From Bryobacteraceae bacterium (GTDB taxonomy: Bacteria > Acidobacteriota > Terriglobia > Bryobacterales > Bryobacteraceae): a stretch of 64,000 nt of DNA. The notes under the pieces are model-generated. The model was not told the origin of the DNA and did not search any database. It was given only the letters and a program-made list of their open reading frames with translations. Positions 452-38,058 of this stretch are shown here, one piece after another; positions within the stretch are counted from its first letter, which is position 1; every line of letters starts with the position of its first letter. Where the stretch lies: positions 1,550,001-1,614,000 of the forward strand of contig BPGE01000001.1 of assembly GCA_026002875.1 (NCBI GenBank), written 5' to 3'. A program made the position numbers and the translations under genes.

Positions 452-1204
452 ATGATCCCCATCCGCGACACCATCCCCTCGCGCAATCCCCCCGTCGCCG
501 TGTGGATCCTCATCCTCGCCAACGCCTTCGTCTTCCTGCTTGAATTGGGCATGCCCGAACCCGTGCTGAACGAATTCTTCCGCCTGTTCGGCATTGTCCC
601 GGCGCGCTACACGCATCCGGCGTGGGCCGAAATCTTCGGCTTTCCCGCCGATGATTACTGGCCTTTCCTCACCAGCATGTTTCTTCACGGCGGCTGGATG
701 CACATCATTGGCAACATGTGGACGCTCTGGATTTTCGGCGACAACGTCGAGGACCGCATGGGCCCGGTGCGCTTCACGATTTTCTACCTCCTCTGCGGCA
801 TCGCCGCCGGCGTCGTGCACCTGATGCTGAATCCCCAGTCCACCATCCCCACTGTCGGCGCCAGCGGCGCCATCGCCGGCGTCATGGGCGCTTATTTCTT
901 CCTGTTTCCCCATTCCCGCGTCATCGTTTTCATCCCGGTTCTCTTTCTGCCGTTCTTTTTTGAAGTGCCCGCCGTCACCTATCTCGGCTTCTGGGCGCTG
1001 TCGCAGGTCTTCAGCGGAACGCTCTCGCTGGCCGGTCCGCAGAACGTCGGCGGCGTCGCCTGGTGGGCTCACGTCGGCGGCTTCGCCGCCGGCATCGTGC
1101 TGCACTTCTTCTTCGTCCGCCAGCGTGGTTCTTACCGCCGCCTCTCCCGTGATCAGTACTTTATGGAGATGCCCTACCTGCCGCCCGGATATTGGAGGCG
1201 ATAA
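452..1204 (+). CDS. rhomboid family intramembrane serine protease
   Basis: Predicted 250-residue polytopic inner-membrane protease of the rhomboid family (S54), which cleaves transmembrane segments of substrate proteins. The catalytic serine sits in a GASGAIAG motif around residue 138, and the catalytic histidine in AHVGGFAAG near residue 209. The N-terminal HGGWMHIIGNMW block is the conserved loop/TM2 histidine region. About six hydrophobic segments are visible. I chose the ATG at 452 because the longer in-frame extension (from 347) is arginine-rich and not rhomboid-like. The stop overlaps the start of the next gene (TAATG at 1202-1206), so the two are probably translationally coupled. Substrate unknown. 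Confidence 0.9.
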   Translation: MIPIRDTIPSRNPPVAVWILILANAFVFLLELGMPEPVLNEFFRLFGIVPARYTHPAWAEIFGFPADDYWPFLTSMFLHGGWMHIIGNMWTLWIFGDNVEDRMGPVRFTIFYLLCGIAAGVVHLMLNPQSTIPTVGASGAIAGVMGAYFFLFPHSRVIVFIPVLFLPFFFEVPAVTYLGFWALSQVFSGTLSLAGPQNVGGVAWWAHVGGFAAGIVLHFFFVRQRGSYRRLSRDQYFMEMPYLPPGYWRR

Positions 1205-2052
1205 TGCCGATGAGCCCCACTGACGTCATCTGGTTCTTTTTCCTTGCCTCTGCTTTGCAGCCCGTGCTGCGGCAGCGGTTTCTCGAAGCCGCCCGCCAGC
1301 GCCTGATCGCCAGGATCGAACGCGACCGCCGCTCGCGCGTCATCCTCCTGATCCACCGCCAGGAGACCATGAGCCTGCTCGGTTTTCCGGTCTTCCGCTA
1401 CATCGACGTCAACGACTCGGAAGAGGTCCTGCGCGCCATCCACATGACCGACCCCGACGTCCCCATCGACATCATCCTCCACACGCCCGGTGGTCTCGTC
1501 CTCGCCTCCATGCAGATCGCCCGCGCCCTCCACAAGCACAAGGGCAAGGTCACCGCCTTCGTGCCCCACTACGCCATGTCCGGCGGCACCCTCATCGCCC
1601 TCGCCGCCGACGAAATCGTCATGAGCGAGTACGCCGTCCTTGGTCCCGTCGATCCGCAGCTCGGCCAATACCCCGCCGCCTCCATCCTGAAGGTCCTCGA
1701 ACAGAAGCCCATCGCCGAAGTCAAGGACGAAACCCTGATCCTCGCCGACCAGGCGCGCAAGGCCATGAACCAGATCCGCGAGGGCGTCTTCGAGCTGCTC
1801 CGCAAGAAATGCCCCGAGGCCAAAGCCGAAGAGCTCGCCCGCCTGCTCAGCGAGGGCACCTGGACCCACGACCACCCCATCACCTTCGAAGCCGCCCAGC
1901 AGTACTGCCTGCCCGTCAGCTCCGCCATGCCGCCCGAGATCCTCGAGCTGATGAGCCTCTATCCGCAGCCTGTCCGCCGTCAGCCGACCGTCGAATATCT
2001 GCCAGAACCCCGCCGCTTCTCCGGCGGCGACGGCAGGGCTGCGCTCCCTTAG
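1204..2052 (+). CDS. SDH-family Clp-fold serine protease (PF01972-like)
   Basis: 282-residue protein resembling the serine dehydrogenase proteinase / SppA-like family with a ClpP-crotonase fold. It starts with one hydrophobic segment (residues about 8-22), so it is probably membrane-anchored, followed by the protease core: HTPGGLVLAS around residue 99 and the likely nucleophile serine in HYAMSGGTLIALAADEI around residue 126. GPVDPQLGQYPAAS after it is also typical of the family. The ATG at 1204 overlaps the rhomboid stop and has a GGAGG-type ribosome site just upstream (1194-1198). A TTG at 1192 is also in frame but would place the ribosome site inside the gene. Tight pairing with a rhomboid suggests a joint role in membrane-protein turnover, which is inference. 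Confidence 0.85.
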   Translation: MPMSPTDVIWFFFLASALQPVLRQRFLEAARQRLIARIERDRRSRVILLIHRQETMSLLGFPVFRYIDVNDSEEVLRAIHMTDPDVPIDIILHTPGGLVLASMQIARALHKHKGKVTAFVPHYAMSGGTLIALAADEIVMSEYAVLGPVDPQLGQYPAASILKVLEQKPIAEVKDETLILADQARKAMNQIREGVFELLRKKCPEAKAEELARLLSEGTWTHDHPITFEAAQQYCLPVSSAMPPEILELMSLYPQPVRRQPTVEYLPEPRRFSGGDGRAALP

Positions 2053-2065
2053 CCGCCCCCAGTCT

Positions 2066-2170
2066 GGTTTCCCGCCGCCCCATCCCCCGGGTTTCCCGCC
2101 GCCCTTGGGCGGCGGCTGCATCCCAACCGTGCGCCTGATCTCCGCCGGGGCGGAGCCTGCATCCCAACCG
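2066..2170 (-). repeat. dispersed head-hairpin-tail repeat, two copies plus a half copy
   Basis: Read on the minus strand, one copy (2169 to 2139) has the head GGTTGGGATGCAG, a 7-bp stem CTCCGCC/GGCGGAG and no tail. The next (2128 to 2090) has the same head, a 9-bp stem CCGCCGCCC/GGGCGGCGG with an AA loop, then the tail GAAACC. A further half copy (about 2079 to 2066) keeps only GGCGGCGGGAAACC. The same head, 9-bp stem plus AA loop and tail make up the tandem array at 36634-37080, but with an unrelated stem sequence. The copies lie between the protease gene and the convergent thrC stop. No family name is known to me. Confidence 0.75.
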
Positions 2171-2208: not shown

Positions 2209-3537
2209 TCACTCCCCCGCGTGCCGCTGCAGCAGCTCCGCAATCGCCTCCACATCCGCAGCCGCCGTCACGGGCTGGTTTGCGAAATTCGGCGAAATCC
2301 GTTCACCGGAAGGCGTGGAAAGCTGCCCCGTGTGGTAGCGGTAGATGTAATCCGGATCCTTCAGCACGTGGCCTGTCAGCACCGCCACGGCGTCTTCTTC
2401 CGCCTTCATCGCTCCGTCAGCAACCAGCTTGCGGATGCCCGCCAGCGTCGCCGCCGATGCCGGCTCGCACCCGATCCCGCACTGCCCGATCACAGCTTTC
2501 GCGTCGGCGATCTCCTGCTCGGACACCTTCTCCACCACGCCGTCCGACTCATCGATCACCTGAATCGCCTTCGGCCAGGACACCGGATCGCCGATCCGGA
2601 TCGCCGTCGCCAGCGTCTCCGGCTTCGTCACGGGTACGAACGAGCCCCGCTTGTGGAAGTATTCGTAAAACGGCGCAGACCCTTCCGCCTGAATCACGGC
2701 GAACCGCGGCAGCCGGTCGATGAAGCCCATTGCAAGCAGTTCTCGAAGGGCTTTTCCAAAAGCGCTGATGTTGCCGAGGTTCCCGCCCGGAAGCACGATC
2801 CAGTCCGGCACGCGCCAGTCGAGCTGATCCAGCAGCTCTGCCATGATCGTCTTCTGCCCTTCAATCCGGAAAGGATTCACGGAATTCAGCAGATAAATCC
2901 CCGTCTTTTCAGCCAGCTCCCGGACCAGTTTCAGGATTTGGTCGAAGTTTGCCTCCACCTGCACCGTCAGCGCGCCGTACTCGAGCGCCTGCGCCAGCTT
3001 CCCGTAGCTGATGTTGCCCTGCGGCAGGAAAATGATCGGCGTCAGTCCGGCGGCGGATGCATACGCCGCCATCGAAGCCGACGTATTGCCCGTCGAAACG
3101 CACGCCACCCGCTTCAGCCCCAGCCGCAGCGCCTGCGAGGCGCCCACGGTCATGCCGTTGTCCTTGAACGAACCCGTCGGGTTGAAGCCCTGATGCTTGA
3201 ACCGCAGCCTGTTCAGCCCTGCATACCGCGCCGCCCGCGGCGCCTCCAGCACGGGCGTGTTGCCCTCCGCCAGCGTCACGATCCGCGTCACGTCCCGGAA
3301 CGGCAGCAGCTCGCGGTAGCGCCACACGCCGGAGCGGTCCTCCGGCGCGTTCGACATCCGCCGCTCCCGCCAGGCGCGTTTCATCGCCGCCGGGTCCAGC
3401 CCCTGGGGCGCGGACGCCTCCAGCAGAGCGCCGCACTTCGGACACGTGTAGATCACCTCGTCCAGCGGAAACCGCGAGGCGCAGGAAGGTTCGATGCAGA
3501 GAAGGCTTGGCGTGGACAACCCTTCAGTGTAAGGCAC
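2209..3537 (-). CDS. thrC: threonine synthase
   Basis: 442-residue PLP-dependent enzyme that converts O-phospho-L-homoserine to L-threonine, the last step of threonine biosynthesis. An N-terminal zinc-ribbon-like segment (CIEPSC and CPKCGALLE, residues about 9-35) is typical of archaeal-type and many bacterial threonine synthases. The PLP lysine lies in FNPTGSFKDNG, and a phosphate-binding ALTGHVLKDP motif is near the C-terminus. The GTG at 3537 gives the start VPYTEGLSTPS, which matches how relatives begin; an upstream in-frame ATG (3627) would add a non-conserved arginine-rich tail. The gene is apparently monocistronic, with rhaM just upstream on the same strand. Confidence 0.93.
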   Translation of the reverse strand: MPYTEGLSTPSLLCIEPSCASRFPLDEVIYTCPKCGALLEASAPQGLDPAAMKRAWRERRMSNAPEDRSGVWRYRELLPFRDVTRIVTLAEGNTPVLEAPRAARYAGLNRLRFKHQGFNPTGSFKDNGMTVGASQALRLGLKRVACVSTGNTSASMAAYASAAGLTPIIFLPQGNISYGKLAQALEYGALTVQVEANFDQILKLVRELAEKTGIYLLNSVNPFRIEGQKTIMAELLDQLDWRVPDWIVLPGGNLGNISAFGKALRELLAMGFIDRLPRFAVIQAEGSAPFYEYFHKRGSFVPVTKPETLATAIRIGDPVSWPKAIQVIDESDGVVEKVSEQEIADAKAVIGQCGIGCEPASAATLAGIRKLVADGAMKAEEDAVAVLTGHVLKDPDYIYRYHTGQLSTPSGERISPNFANQPVTAAADVEAIAELLQRHAGE

Positions 3538-3556
3538 GCGCCCGGTGCGGCGCAGT

Positions 3557-3877
<321 letters not shown>

Positions 3878-30370: not shown

Positions 30371-33300
30371 GTTCTCCCCACGCGCGTGGGGATGGTCCGA
30401 GCTGGTACGGTATACCACGCTCGAATGCCGTGTTCTCCCCACGCGCGTGGGGATGGTCCGCAGTAACGTCCTCATCGATTCACCACCCAAGTGTTCTCCC
30501 CACGCGCGTGGGGATGGTCCGGCAGCGCAGGAATGGCGCGCCAAAACTGTCGGGTTCTCCCCACGCGCGTGGGGATGGTCCGCTGTACCACCGGTGGCGG
30601 CACATCGCTGGCTCGTTCTCCCCACGCGCGTGGGGATGGTCCGCGGCGGAGGAAGCTCCACGAGTTACATCCAGAGTTCTCCCCACGCGCGTGGGGATGG
30701 TCCTGAACCACCGCACTCCAGCAGCCTTGGCAATGCGTTCTCCCCACGCGCGTGGGGATGGTCCGGCTGGTTCAGCGATCGCGGGCGGGGAGGATGGGTT
30801 CTCCCCACGCGCGTGGGGATGGTCCGCATAGATGGTACGAAGCAACCCGTGCCAGAAAGTTCTCCCCACGCGCGTGGGGATGGTCCGTGCCCGCGCTGCC
30901 AGGCGTTCGATTGGCAAAAGTTCTCCCCACGCGCGTGGGGATGGTCCGACCGTATTCCCTGCCGACACCGCTGTCTCGATGTTCTCCCCACGCGCGTGGG
31001 GATGGTCCGGATTTCCGCAATTTCGCGCCATGCGTCCTCAAGTTCTCCCCACGCGCGTGGGGATGGTCCGCGTTGCGCAGCGCCACCCCGGGAGGCTGAA
31101 ACGTTCTCCCCACGCGCGTGGGGATGGTCCGCGTTGCGCAGCGCCACCCCGGGAGGCTGAAACGTTCTCCCCACGCGCGTGGGGATGGTCCGTATTTGAG
31201 CGCTGAGATCGCGGCTTGGGCGATGTTCTCCCCACGCGCGTGGGGATGGTCCGGCTCTCGAAGACCCAGATGCAGCGCTCTTGCGGTTCTCCCCACGCGC
31301 GTGGGGATGGTCCGTCGGACCCGAGGCGGACGCATATCAGCGATGCGTTCTCCCCACGCGCGTGGGGATGGTCCGGTTCGCCACGGCTTCTTCTGTTTGG
31401 CCACGTCGTTCTCCCCACGCGCGTGGGGATGGTCCGTTCGCCGCCCATCGCCGCTGCCCGTCGTCCAGGTTCTCCCCACGCGCGTGGGGATGGTCCGCGC
31501 GCCTACATCAACAATCGCCGGCACCGACAGTTCTCCCCACGCGCGTGGGGATGGTCCGGAGCGTACGTACCCAAGGAGCATTGCATGAGTGTTCTCCCCA
31601 CGCGCGTGGGGATGGTCCGGCATCCGCGCCTTCGGCTCGGAATCCGAGATGGTTCTCCCCACGCGCGTGGGGATGGTCCGTTGATGATCAACTCCTGGCG
31701 GTTGTAGGGCAGGTTCTCCCCACGCGCGTGGGGATGGTCCGGGCACCTTGGCGGCCCAACAGCCATCGGCCGTGTTCTCCCCACGCGCGTGGGGATGGTC
31801 CGGCCTCGGCCGTCAGCGCAATCTCGGGTGGGATGTTCTCCCCACGCGCGTGGGGATGGTCCTTCGAGCTGCTCGAGGTCGGCTACGACATCTACGTTCT
31901 CCCCACGCGCGTGGGGATGGTCCGCCCGATCTGTCCGATGGCAGCGAGCGCCGGGCGTTCTCCCCACGCGCGTGGGGATGGTCCGGGCACCTTGGCGGCC
32001 CAACAGCCATCGGCCGTGTTCTCCCCACGCGCGTGGGGATGGTCCGGCCAACGTCTCGACCCGCAAGGACCGGATCAAGTTCTCCCCACGCGCGTGGGGA
32101 TGGTCCGAGAGCTCGAGCGGCTGGAGGCCGCCGGCCGGCGTTCTCCCCACGCGCGTGGGGATGGTCCGTTTCTGGGCGGCTCGATTACGCTCGCAGCGGC
32201 GTTCTCCCCACGCGCGTGGGGATGGTCCGTAGCGCTTGACTGGCACATCTCCTGGAAGCGCGTTCTCCCCACGCGCGTGGGGATGGTCCGTACCACTGCC
32301 AGCTCCCGCACGACTTGTACCTGTTCTCCCCACGCGCGTGGGGATGGTCCGTACCACTGCCAGCTCCCGCACGACTTGTACCTGTTCTCCCCACGCGCGT
32401 GGGGATGGTCCGGCGGCCTTCTCCGCAGCCTTTGTCATCGATTCGTTCTCCCCACGCGCGTGGGGATGGTCCGACGGCCTTGGCCGTCGAACTGTTCGGC
32501 CGGGGGTTCTCCCCACGCGCGTGGGGATGGTCCGACGGCCTTGGCCGTCGAACTGTTCGGCCGGGGGTTCTCCCCACGCGCGTGGGGATGGTCCGAGGTC
32601 GACGTCATTCGCCAGATCGCGCATCACGTTCTCCCCACGCGCGTGGGGATGGTCCGATCTCTTCAGCGGGCGGACGAGCGTCGATGCCGTTCTCCCCACG
32701 CGCGTGGGGATGGTCCGCACGTTTTTGACGACGGCATACTGCACGATCCGTTCTCCCCACGCGCGTGGGGATGGTCCGCGCCCAGCGGCCCTTCCCCCAC
32801 TATGCCCACGGTTCTCCCCACGCGCGTGGGGATGGTCCGGCCTGGGCCAATCAGAAGCGCGAGGCGTGGATGTTCTCCCCACGCGCGTGGGGATGGTCCG
32901 GGATCGTGCTTGATTGTGACCCGCGCCGCGTCGTTCTCCCCACGCGCGTGGGGATGGTCCGCCGCGGCGGTACTCGAAGACATCCCTGGCTGAGTTCTCC
33001 CCACGCGCGTGGGGATGGTCCGCAGGTCCGCGTGCGCTTCCCGTCCGATGAGGAGTTCTCCCCACGCGCGTGGGGATGGTCCTGCAATGAGCCGGACCTC
33101 GATTTGGCTGTAGTCGTTCTCCCCACGCGCGTGGGGATGGTCCGGTAGACCAGTCTGGCAACAGGCTGATGGGCTTGTTCTCCCCACGCGCGTGGGGATG
33201 GTCCGTTCGCCAAAAATGCGGTTTTGTGCCCGGACCGGTTCTCCCCACGCGCGTGGGGATGGTCCGACCCAGGCTATGGGCGATCGGCAGCAGGGAGTGT

Positions 33301-33571
33301 TCTCCCCACGCGCGTGGGGATGGTCCGGCTGGGGCAGGCCTCCATGGTACGGCGGGATAGTTCTCCCCACGCGCGTGGGGATGGTCCGCACGTTCAGATG
33401 GCGGCTGTGGATCGATTGGCGTTCTCCCCACGCGCGTGGGGATGGTCCGCCTGGCCCCGGGAGCCGAAACCACCGCATTGCGTTCTCCCCACGCGCGTGG
33501 GGATCGTCCGGAAATCGCGAGCAAGCTCAGGCCATCCAGGCCGTTCTCCCCACGCGCGTGGGGGTGGTCCG
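30371..33571 (+). CRISPR. type I-E CRISPR array, 53 repeats and 52 spacers
   Basis: 53 repeats of 28-29 nt begin at 30371 and recur at exactly 61 bp up to 33543, leaving 52 spacers of 32 nt (counting a 29-nt repeat). Each repeat starts GTTCT, has the perfect palindrome CCCCACGCGCGTGGGG, and ends ATGGTCC plus a final base. Cas6e cleavage after the hairpin would leave the 8-nt handle AUGGUCCG. The last two repeats (33482 and 33543) carry one substitution each (GGATCGTCC; GGGTGGTCC), typical of the leader-distal end, so spacers were added at the cas2 side. The 29th base is G in all repeats but three. Four spacers are present twice. Confidence 0.98.
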
Positions 33572-36297: not shown

Positions 36298-36633
36298 GCG
36301 GGTTGCGAAGACCGCACTGTTGGCGCGGTCGAAGATGATTCGACCGTCTCCAGCGCTGTGAAAGCACGGGGCACTCGTCTGAGATCGGAATTGCGCGTGT
36401 GCTCCCGCCGGCACCGCAACTTCCGCGGACACTGATTTGCGATCAGGAGAATCAGGCAGTCCGAGAAGAGACAGGCGGATTCCGGGCTGGCGCAGGGCGC
36501 CCGGAGGCGACTGAAGGGGGCCTGGAATTGGGCCGCGGCGGGGGCGAAGCCGGTTTCGGTTGGTTTTGCAGATTCCTCGATCGGGGGGATTGCGAGCGGT
36601 GCGGGGAGTGGTTTCCGGGACGGGGACGCAGAG
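36298..36633. other. intergenic stretch without recognisable gene
   Basis: About 335 bp between the RHS fragment and the hairpin repeat array. I see no conserved coding frame, RNA gene or element ends. It may be further debris of the rearranged zone. Confidence 0.4.
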
Positions 36634-37080
36634 TTGGGATGCAGCCCTCGCGCAAGCGCGAGGGGAAATCCGTTGGGGAGGGCGCGGGGACGCAGAGTTG
36701 GGATGCAGCCCTCGCGCAAGCGCGAGGGGAAACCCGTTGGGGAGGGCGCGGGGAACACAGTTGGGATGCAGCCCTCGCGCGAGCGCGAGGGGAAACCCGT
36801 TGGGGAGTGAGCGAGGGGACGGTTGGGATGCAGCCCTCGCGCAAGCGCGAGGGGAAACCCGGGAGGGGGAGGGCGCGGGGACGCAGAGTTGGGATGCAGC
36901 CCTCGCGCAAGCGCGAGGGGAAATCCGTTGGGGAGTGAGCGAGGGGACGGTTGGGATGCAGCCCTCGCGCGAGCGCGAGGGGAAATCCGTTGGGGAGGGC
37001 GCGGGGACGCAGAGTTGGGATGCAGCCCTCGCGCAAGCGCGAGGGGAAACGCGTTGGGATGCAGCCCTCGCGCAAGCGGG
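36634..37080 (+). repeat. tandem array of eight head-hairpin-tail repeats
   Basis: Eight copies of TTGGGATGCAG begin at 36634, 36698, 36761, 36823, 36889, 36951, 37014 and 37054 (steps 64, 63, 62, 66, 62, 63, 40). Each of the first seven is followed by a perfect 9-bp stem CCCTCGCGC/GCGCGAGGG with an AA loop (GA in copies 3 and 6), then GAAA and a linker of one of two kinds (GGCGCGGGGACGCAGAG or TGAGCGAGGGGACGG). The eighth is broken in the hairpin. It is not a CRISPR, because the intervening 30 bp are themselves repeated. Copies with a different stem lie at 2066-2170 on the other strand. Open frames through it are artefacts of the repeat. Confidence 0.88.
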
Positions 37081-37224
37081 TCTGTGAAGAAATCAGGTTT
37101 GAGACGCGGAGGAAGGGGGGGGAGAGATCTGGGAAGCCTCTGGCGGCTGTTGGAAATCGGAATGGCCGGGGCTGGAGCGGCCCCGGCGTGGGGCGTTGGG
37201 CCGGTTTGGCCCGCCCGGGGGCGC

Positions 37225-37905
37225 TCAGCAGGTGGCGGCGGCCAGCGTGGGCGGCGCCGATTCCAGCTTCCTCCACACCAGCCGGATCCACTGCATCACG
37301 TTATAGGCCAGCGCCCACAGCATGCCTTCCTGTCTGACTTTCCGCCAGCCCCTCACATGAAAGCGCCGCAGCCCCAGCACCCCTTTGATCTGCAGCTGCG
37401 GAAACTCTCCGTACCGGCTCCGCTGGCGGTAAAACTGCCGGCCTTCCGGGCTGGCCATCCGCTCCAGGTAGGCCCGCATCGCTTCGCTCTCCTCGGCCCG
37501 CTCCACCCACCGGCCCCGCCCCTCGGCCCGCCCGCAGCAGTCGCGCCGGTGCGGACATGCCGCACAGGCCTCGGCCGCAGCCTCGTACCGCACCTTCCGC
37601 GCCCCGTTCTTCCACCGCGACCGCCCCCGCTTGAGCCGCTCCCCCGCCGGGCAGATCAGCTCGTCGTTCTCCGCGTCATAGACGAAAGCCTGCGGCCCGA
37701 ACTCTTCCCCAATCCCGTTGCGCACCAGCCCGCCCCGGTGCCGCGCCGCGTCCGGCTCCCACGGCGCATACAGCTCGATCCCCTCCCGGTGGGCGTACTC
37801 GACTTTGCGGCGCGACGTGGTGCCCCCATCGGCCAGCATCCGCTCCGGCACCCGCGCCGGGCGCGCCGGGGCGGGGCGCGCGCGGGCGCTCCAGTCGGCG
37901 ACGAG
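37225..37905 (-). pseudogene. IS1182-type transposase, C-terminal remnant
   Basis: The readable part begins around RMLADGGTTSRRKVEYA and includes CPAGERLKRGRSRWKNGARKV-like cysteine region with CAACPHRRDCCG, the segment YLERMASPEGRQFYRQRS, and GVLGLRRFHVRGWRKVRQEG near the end, all typical of the C-terminal half of IS1182 family DDE transposases. The first half, with the N-terminal domain and first Asp, is missing: upstream residues (to an ATG at 38019) are unrelated and overlap the promoter of the next gene. No terminal repeats were found. A dead remnant. Confidence 0.8.
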
Positions 37906-37986
37906 GACGTGCTCGAACACGGGCGTAGTATAGCAGCTGCCACCGGTCCACTCCCGGTGGCGGAGCCGGGCGCGACGCGAAATCCC

Positions 37987-38016
37987 TTGACAGACCTGAC
38001 CGGTCAATACTATACT
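37987..38016 (+). promoter_or_regulatory. sigma-70-like promoter with palindromic operator candidate
   Basis: TTGACA (37987-37992) and TATACT (38011-38016) are separated by 18 bp, a near-consensus promoter for the PEP-CTERM gene starting at 38059. The spacer contains the perfect palindrome TGACCGGTCA (37997-38006), a plausible repressor site. A GGAGGAGA ribosome site follows at 38048-38055. Confidence 0.6.
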
Positions 38017-38058
38017 CACCAGGACCGAAGTAAGTGATTTTTTTGCAGGAGGAGAATC

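What the first reader, a model, noticed from the sequence alone, without database searches (positions are those of the whole stretch)
36634..37080. Hairpin repeat family with conserved flanks and a completely exchanged stem
Eight tandem copies here and two more (plus a half) at 2066-2170 on the opposite strand share the head GGTTGGGATGCAG and tail GAAACC around a 9-bp stem with an AA loop. The stem is CCCTCGCGC/GCGCGAGGG here but CCGCCGCCC/GGGCGGCGG at 2096-2115. Keeping stem length, loop and flanks while every stem base pair may change is the mark of selection for structure, as an RNA or DNA hairpin. I know of no named family with this design. It may be a palindromic mobile element, a small-RNA unit or a protein-binding hairpin.
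Basis: seen in the sequence. Interest (0 to 1): 0.75.

Follow-up and report, generated by a model that had tools for sequence, protein, structure and literature searches.

The report
Mobile hairpin repeats with transposase relative
The tandem hairpins are copies of a short repeat, present hundreds of times in this genome, that most likely spreads with the help of a small single-strand DNA transposase encoded elsewhere in the same genome, a poorly studied relative of a known kind of bacterial mobile repeat.

Summary
The hairpins are real and far above chance: the exact head GTTGGGATGCAG occurs 378 times in the genome (reversed-pattern control 1). They form a REP-like family (repetitive extragenic palindrome). 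Among 160 distinct copies only pairs 3, 4, 7 and 8 change on both sides; there are four perfect stem classes. Changes are compensatory (98% of cells paired, 86% after shuffling), though template switching could also cause that. Copies flank, on both sides and in one orientation, a 149-aa HUH/Y1 transposase gene with motifs of the little-known "class 3" TnpA_Y1. Four of 256 order relatives carry the head-hairpin-tail design; three, of another genus, also encode short-form relatives of the enzyme near hairpins of this kind. All 39 multi-copy clusters examined are head-to-tail. Where both sides of a class 3-like gene have matching hairpins, orientation is direct (8 of 8 gene places, six loci; 29 other places have none), unlike classical RAYT/REP pairs. 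Class 3 genes with high-copy hairpins were described in 2018, so this is a new variant of a known kind. Mobilisation is inferred.

The parts
36633..36671 (+). REP copy 1: head, 9-bp hairpin CCCTCGCGC with AA loop, tail GAAATCC
36697..36735 (+). REP copy 2
36760..36798 (+). REP copy 3 (loop GA)
36822..36860 (+). REP copy 4
36888..36926 (+). REP copy 5
36950..36988 (+). REP copy 6 (loop GA)
37014..37052 (+). REP copy 7, abutting copy 8 at 39-nt spacing
37053..37077 (+). REP copy 8, cut in the hairpin by an insertion sequence end
37078..37850 (-). Remnant of the insertion sequence (end GGGTCTGTGAA at 37078); similarity to the 500-aa transposase frame at L063 7899-9401 stops at about 37850 by eye, within the frame 37225-38019
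2090..2127 (-). REP copy with stem CCGCCGCCC/GGGCGGCGG; no such repeat at the matching site of relatives G143 and G144
2140..2168 (-). Head with a different 7-bp hairpin and no tail (degenerate or variant copy)
2066..2080 (-). Half copy: tail plus one stem arm

Best explanation
The array is part of a REP-like family of mobile hairpins whose partner is the class 3 HUH/Y1 transposase P0001 (149 aa, genome 2167717-2168166). Shown: hundreds of copies, compensatory stem classes, copies on both sides of the gene, head-to-tail orientation in the clusters read, and the same design near related genes in another genus. Inferred: the enzyme binds one strand of the folded hairpin in single-stranded DNA, reads mainly the flanks (foot TTTC and 3' tail CTGCATCCCAAC on the gene's sense strand) and needs a short GC stem of any of several sequences. 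It cuts and joins there in the manner of IS200/IS605 ends, so that units run from hairpin to hairpin on the same strand. Arrays then also grow by ordinary tandem duplication. Any present use to the host is unproven.
For: 378 exact heads. P0001 is Y1_Tnp above the Pfam cut-off (28.1 against 23 bits) with THVH, W-A and YVVEKQ, matching the class 3 signature NHVH / W[TA] / Y----Q except N to T. A fold model of a relative (L153, 35% identical to P0001; pLDDT 75.6) matches IS200/IS605 transposases and the E. coli RAYT 4ER8: all 30 chains at E <= 0.001 are transposases of this kind by their titles. REP hairpins lie 67 and 135 nt downstream of P0001, and a one-mismatch head about 100 nt upstream, all in one orientation. 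Pattern head-any stem-tail: 5 of 257 genomes of the order (own 304, G208 18, G201 4, G205 4, G145 4; reversed control 0). Of eight short-form gene places examined in G201, G205 and G208, seven have a hairpin of this kind upstream. Compensation: 160 distinct own copies, 98.0% of cells paired, shuffles 86.0% mean and 87.9% maximum; other genus, 56 distinct copies, 98.4%, shuffles 84.4% and 87.3%. 39 of 39 multi-copy clusters are single-orientation. Own paralogs at 2182253 and 800893 are flanked by two other hairpin families, also direct; an exact pattern for the first family has 59 places.
Against: No activity, transcription or new transposition was observed. 29 of 37 class 3-like gene places had no matching hairpin pair on both sides under my criteria, and the eight that do are six loci (three are tandem copies in G208). 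One short-form gene of G208 (L148) had no hairpin near it. G145 has 4 pattern hits but its best P0001 match is only 35% identical over residues 30-144; G206 and G202 encode short forms but have no pattern hit, their flanks showing a different hairpin or no pair. The published class 3 foot CnGA is not at the stem: CGGA or CGGG lies 4 nt outside it. Exact insertion boundaries and any target duplication could not be read, because relatives are too diverged. Higher-order repeats (for example 771 bp at 33-36 kb, positions) show that local tandem duplication also happens. About 165 of the 378 exact heads were not read.
Confidence: 0.72

Rival explanations
1. The array is mainly a passive minisatellite: one inserted hairpin multiplied by replication slippage or unequal exchange, with stem pairing kept by template switching in the palindrome and not by any protein or RNA function.
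For: Higher-order repeats within arrays. Only four perfect stem classes exist in what was read, and one-sided intermediates are present. Template switching can create and maintain hairpins (PMC8794818, search listing only).
Against: The same unit sits at 45 clusters between 0.03 and 2.37 Mb of the genome, so it spreads between loci. Copies flank the Y1 gene. Similar flanks recur with other stems in another genus.
Confidence: 0.2
2. A classical REP/REPIN family moved by a class 2 RAYT such as P0002 (3427295), the genome's other gene found with the Pfam Y1 family.
For: P0002 scores 78.7 bits against the NCBIfam RAYT model (cut-off 80).
Against: No exact head lies in the 18 kb around P0002; one head with a mismatch there is no more than chance gives (1 found, 1.8 expected). 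The element has no GT[AG]G foot (it has GCAG and TTTC), and no cluster read is inverted.
Confidence: 0.05
3. A functional RNA or regulatory hairpin (terminator, mRNA stabiliser, small RNA) that spread because it is useful to the host.
For: The copies at 2066-2170 lie between the ends of converging frames 1192-2052 (+) and 2209-3627 (-); REPs are often downstream of genes and may act in transcripts (PMC3733652, abstract passage). A few G-T pairs occur in the stems.
Against: No Rfam match in the window except RNase P at the gathering threshold. Clusters of up to 23 copies and absence of the pattern from 252 of 257 genomes suggest a mobile origin. No expression data.
Confidence: 0.08

Closest known systems
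Class 3 TnpA_Y1 genes with REP-like hairpins (PMC6006769, 2018; ~600 copies in Solibacter usitatus Ellin6076)
   Same: Y1 HUH protein with W[TA] and Y----Q motifs, gene flanked by atypical hairpins that are abundant in the genome; published in Acidobacteria, to which the named relatives L153-L155 belong
   Different: P0001 is a shorter form (149 aa; an 18-column gap in the N-terminal part of the alignment; THVH in place of NHVH). The CnGA foot is not at the stem. Direct orientation, compensatory stem classes and long head-to-tail arrays are not described in the passages I read.
GTAG REPs and RAYTs (class 2 TnpA_REP)
   Same: Short GC palindrome with conserved foot, hundreds of copies, alternative complementary stem residues, clusters, species-restricted families (PMC2817692 and PMC3733652, passages)
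   Different: No GT[AG]G foot; gene flanked by direct, not inverted, copies (for the inverted rule); P0001 scores 19 bits against the RAYT model (cut-off 80)
IS200/IS605 insertion sequences
   Same: Fold of the enzyme; same-strand hairpins near both gene ends (the IS200/IS605 layout is recalled)
   Different: P0001 scores 27.9 bits against the IS200 model (cut-off 55). Most copies carry no gene, and hairpins far outnumber genes.

Membership tests
Class 3 TnpA_Y1 system | HUH motif NHVH | tested here: inconclusive
   THVH in P0001; both H invariant in 18 of 18 aligned
Class 3 TnpA_Y1 system | W[TA] and Y----Q motifs | tested here: met
   WADY and YVVEKQ in P0001; W108, Y129 and Q134 invariant in 18 of 18
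Class 3 TnpA_Y1 system | Gene flanked by hairpins that are abundant in the genome | tested here: met
Class 3 TnpA_Y1 system | 5' tetranucleotide foot CnGA | tested here: inconclusive
   CGG followed by A (86 of 316 at that column) or G (204 of 316) lies 4 nt from the stem, not at its foot
Class 3 TnpA_Y1 system | Membership by the authors' own class 3 profile or tree | not tested
   profile not available here
GTAG REP / RAYT (class 2) | GT[AG]G foot next to the palindrome | tested here: not met
   conserved GCAG on one side and TTTC on the other
GTAG REP / RAYT (class 2) | REPs in inverted orientation around the gene | tested here: not met
   P0001: direct; direct in 8 of 8 gene places with a pair (six loci), among 37 places
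GTAG REP / RAYT (class 2) | Enzyme matches REP_Tyr_transpos | tested here: not met
   19 against 80 bits
IS200/IS605 | Enzyme matches transpos_IS200 | tested here: not met
   27.9 against 55 bits
IS200/IS605-like mechanism | Single-strand cleavage at the hairpin by Y and HUH | not testable with these tools
   needs biochemistry
CRISPR array | Unique spacers between repeats | tested here: not met
   the stretches between hairpins are near-copies of one another

The most novel reading that the evidence does not exclude
Short-form class 3 enzymes are living intermediates between IS200 transposases and REP systems. They recognise two-sided flanks and tolerate many stems, and they move same-strand hairpin-to-hairpin units (about 60 nt, or whole gene units as in the 810-bp triple array of G208) as single-stranded circles. 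This would seed head-to-tail arrays, with no inverted REPINs.
Probability: 0.3. Interest if true: 0.65.

Novelty: new variant of a known kind. Interest (0 to 1): 0.45.

Why it matters
How REP elements spread, and how IS200-type transposases turned into their mobilisers, is an open question. This genome offers three class 3-like genes, each beside its own hairpin family, with the enzyme's likely recognition signals separated from a partly variable stem. That makes binding and cleavage tests simple to design.

Tried and rejected
Covariance model: not built, because own (9-bp) and other-genus (8-bp) stems did not align in register; patterns were used instead. Empty site of the P0001 locus: matches to its left side were not beside those to its right in G142-G145. 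Empty sites within L138: conserved blocks lie apart in the relatives. A concatenated flank query was prepared and not used. CRISPR, classical REP/RAYT and Rfam families were rejected as in the tables. An outer GGTT/AACC helix was considered; pairing is partial and it is not claimed. The genome-contig scan gave three named loci and did not name the window's own species. Papers: PMC6006769 (passages, and one section), PMC3733652 (passages), PMC2817692 (passages); PMC8794818 and PMC8450116 in search listings only. Searches for prior reports.

Full report
Observation. The window holds eight tandem heads GTTGGGATGCAG at 36633-37064 and two on the other strand at 2116-2127 and 2157-2168. Genome-wide the exact head occurs 378 times (210 + 168) against one for the reversed pattern. 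I read 33 stretches of the genome (206133 bases) plus the window: 213 of the 378 exact heads, and 316 heads with up to two mismatches and full context. The stretches follow the places listed, which stop near 2.3 Mb; one listed place (1273278) was left out of these counts and, read apart in L029, has the stem CCGCCGCCC. Of the heads read, 279 have at least 8 of 9 stem pairs.

Stem. Only four perfect stems occur in what was read: CCCTCGCGC 165, CCCTCGGCC 59, CCGCCGCCC 15, CCATCGCGC 5. After dropping 31 of 316 rows with fewer than 6 of 9 pairs, 160 distinct 43-mers remain. Pairs 3, 4, 7 and 8 show changes on both sides (20, 17, 33 and 56 sequences); pairs 1, 2, 5, 6 and 9 show none. 98.0% of cells pair, against a shuffled mean of 86.0% and maximum of 87.9% (300 shuffles) and at most 65% when the 3' side is slid by 1-3 bases. 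Shared ancestry of classes and template switching both weaken the step from compensation to selection.

Unit. In the outermost flanks of 45 clusters, CACG before the head and GAAA(C/T)CCG after the hairpin are conserved, with a weaker stretch to about 25 nt after the hairpin. This fits the commonest spacings of 62-64 nt; the shortest common spacing is 39-40. All 45 clusters read (39 with more than one copy) have a single orientation.

Partner gene. Two Y1_Tnp hits over the cut-off exist in the genome. P0002 at 3427295 has no exact head in the 18 kb read around it. P0001 at 2167717-2168166 has hairpins 67 and 135 nt downstream and an upstream copy, now split by an insertion sequence, with a one-mismatch head about 100 nt before the start. 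Two more distant paralogs, at 2182253 and 800893, are flanked by different hairpin families, also in direct orientation. At the second of these, identical 12-base flanks surround two different stems (GCGGTCC and GCGCGCC).

Enzyme type. P0001 falls below the NCBIfam cut-offs for IS200 and for RAYT. It carries W-A and Y----Q, which the 2018 survey gives for class 3, and H-x-H. A model of a short-form relative from L153, 35% identical, matches 30 chains at E <= 0.001, by title IS200/IS605-type transposases and the E. coli RAYT with REP DNA.

Relatives. The exact head is near background in the other 256 genomes of the order (highest 10). The pattern head-any stem-tail is found in 5 of 257 genomes. 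In G208, G201 and G205 a related pattern gives 66, 20 and 18 places, and 0 in six other genomes of that genus. 56 of the 57 distinct strings show five perfect stems, with 98.4% of cells paired against at most 87.3% in 500 shuffles. Of eight short-form gene places examined in these three genomes, seven have a hairpin of this kind upstream (three of them, tandem copies in G208 at an 810-bp period, also downstream) and one, L148, has none; other P0001 matches in these genomes were not examined. The same-genus genome G145 has four full copies and cousins that keep a TTC[stem]CTGC core with other outer tails. Of 37 class 3-like gene places, 8 (six loci) have matching hairpins on both sides, all direct, and 29 have no such pair by my criteria.

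Mobility. The window's copies at 2066-2170 lie between the ends of converging frames (1192-2052 + and 2209-3627 -). In G144 only 34 bases separate the conserved blocks and in G143 111, and the repeat is missing there. Exact ends cannot be read.

Insertion target. Of ten GGGTCTGTGAA sites in the genome, eight lie at the loop of a REP hairpin, one follows a REP-like tail and half stem, and one lies elsewhere. The eight are about five events: two are the ends of one element and three are tandem duplicates. Insertion sequences in REPs are known (ISPpu9; PMC8450116 abstract in the search listing).

Judgement. This is a REP-like family, most probably mobilised by a class 3 TnpA_Y1. The direct layout and two-sided flanks are what I did not find described in the passages read. 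Mechanism is inference.

Noticed in passing
window 37078; L063 7825-9548; L138 17608-18216: An insertion sequence and a short related element with the same end (GGGTCTGTGAA) sit in REP hairpin loops; a 4-base duplication can be read at L063 (GCTT) and L138 (AAGC).
   Followed up: partly
G000 2182253 (L144) and 800893 (L145): Two further class 3-like genes, each flanked by its own hairpin family; an exact pattern for one family has 59 places genome-wide, the other shows two stems in identical flanks.
   Followed up: partly
L146 4836-6902 (G208): Three tandem copies of a class 3-like transposase gene at an 810-bp period, embedded in hairpin arrays.
   Followed up: partly
window 30371-33500: A separate CRISPR-like array with repeat GTTCTCCCCACGCGCGTGGGGATGGTCCG.
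   Followed up: no
L140 (G000 about 2116-2117 kb): Another CRISPR-like repeat, GTCTCAATCCCCTTTTGAACGGGGCTCAGGTCTGAC, near a REP cluster (seen in the printout).
   Followed up: no
L065 (G000 33-36 kb): A 771-bp higher-order repeat that holds copies of two REP families (positions).
   Followed up: no
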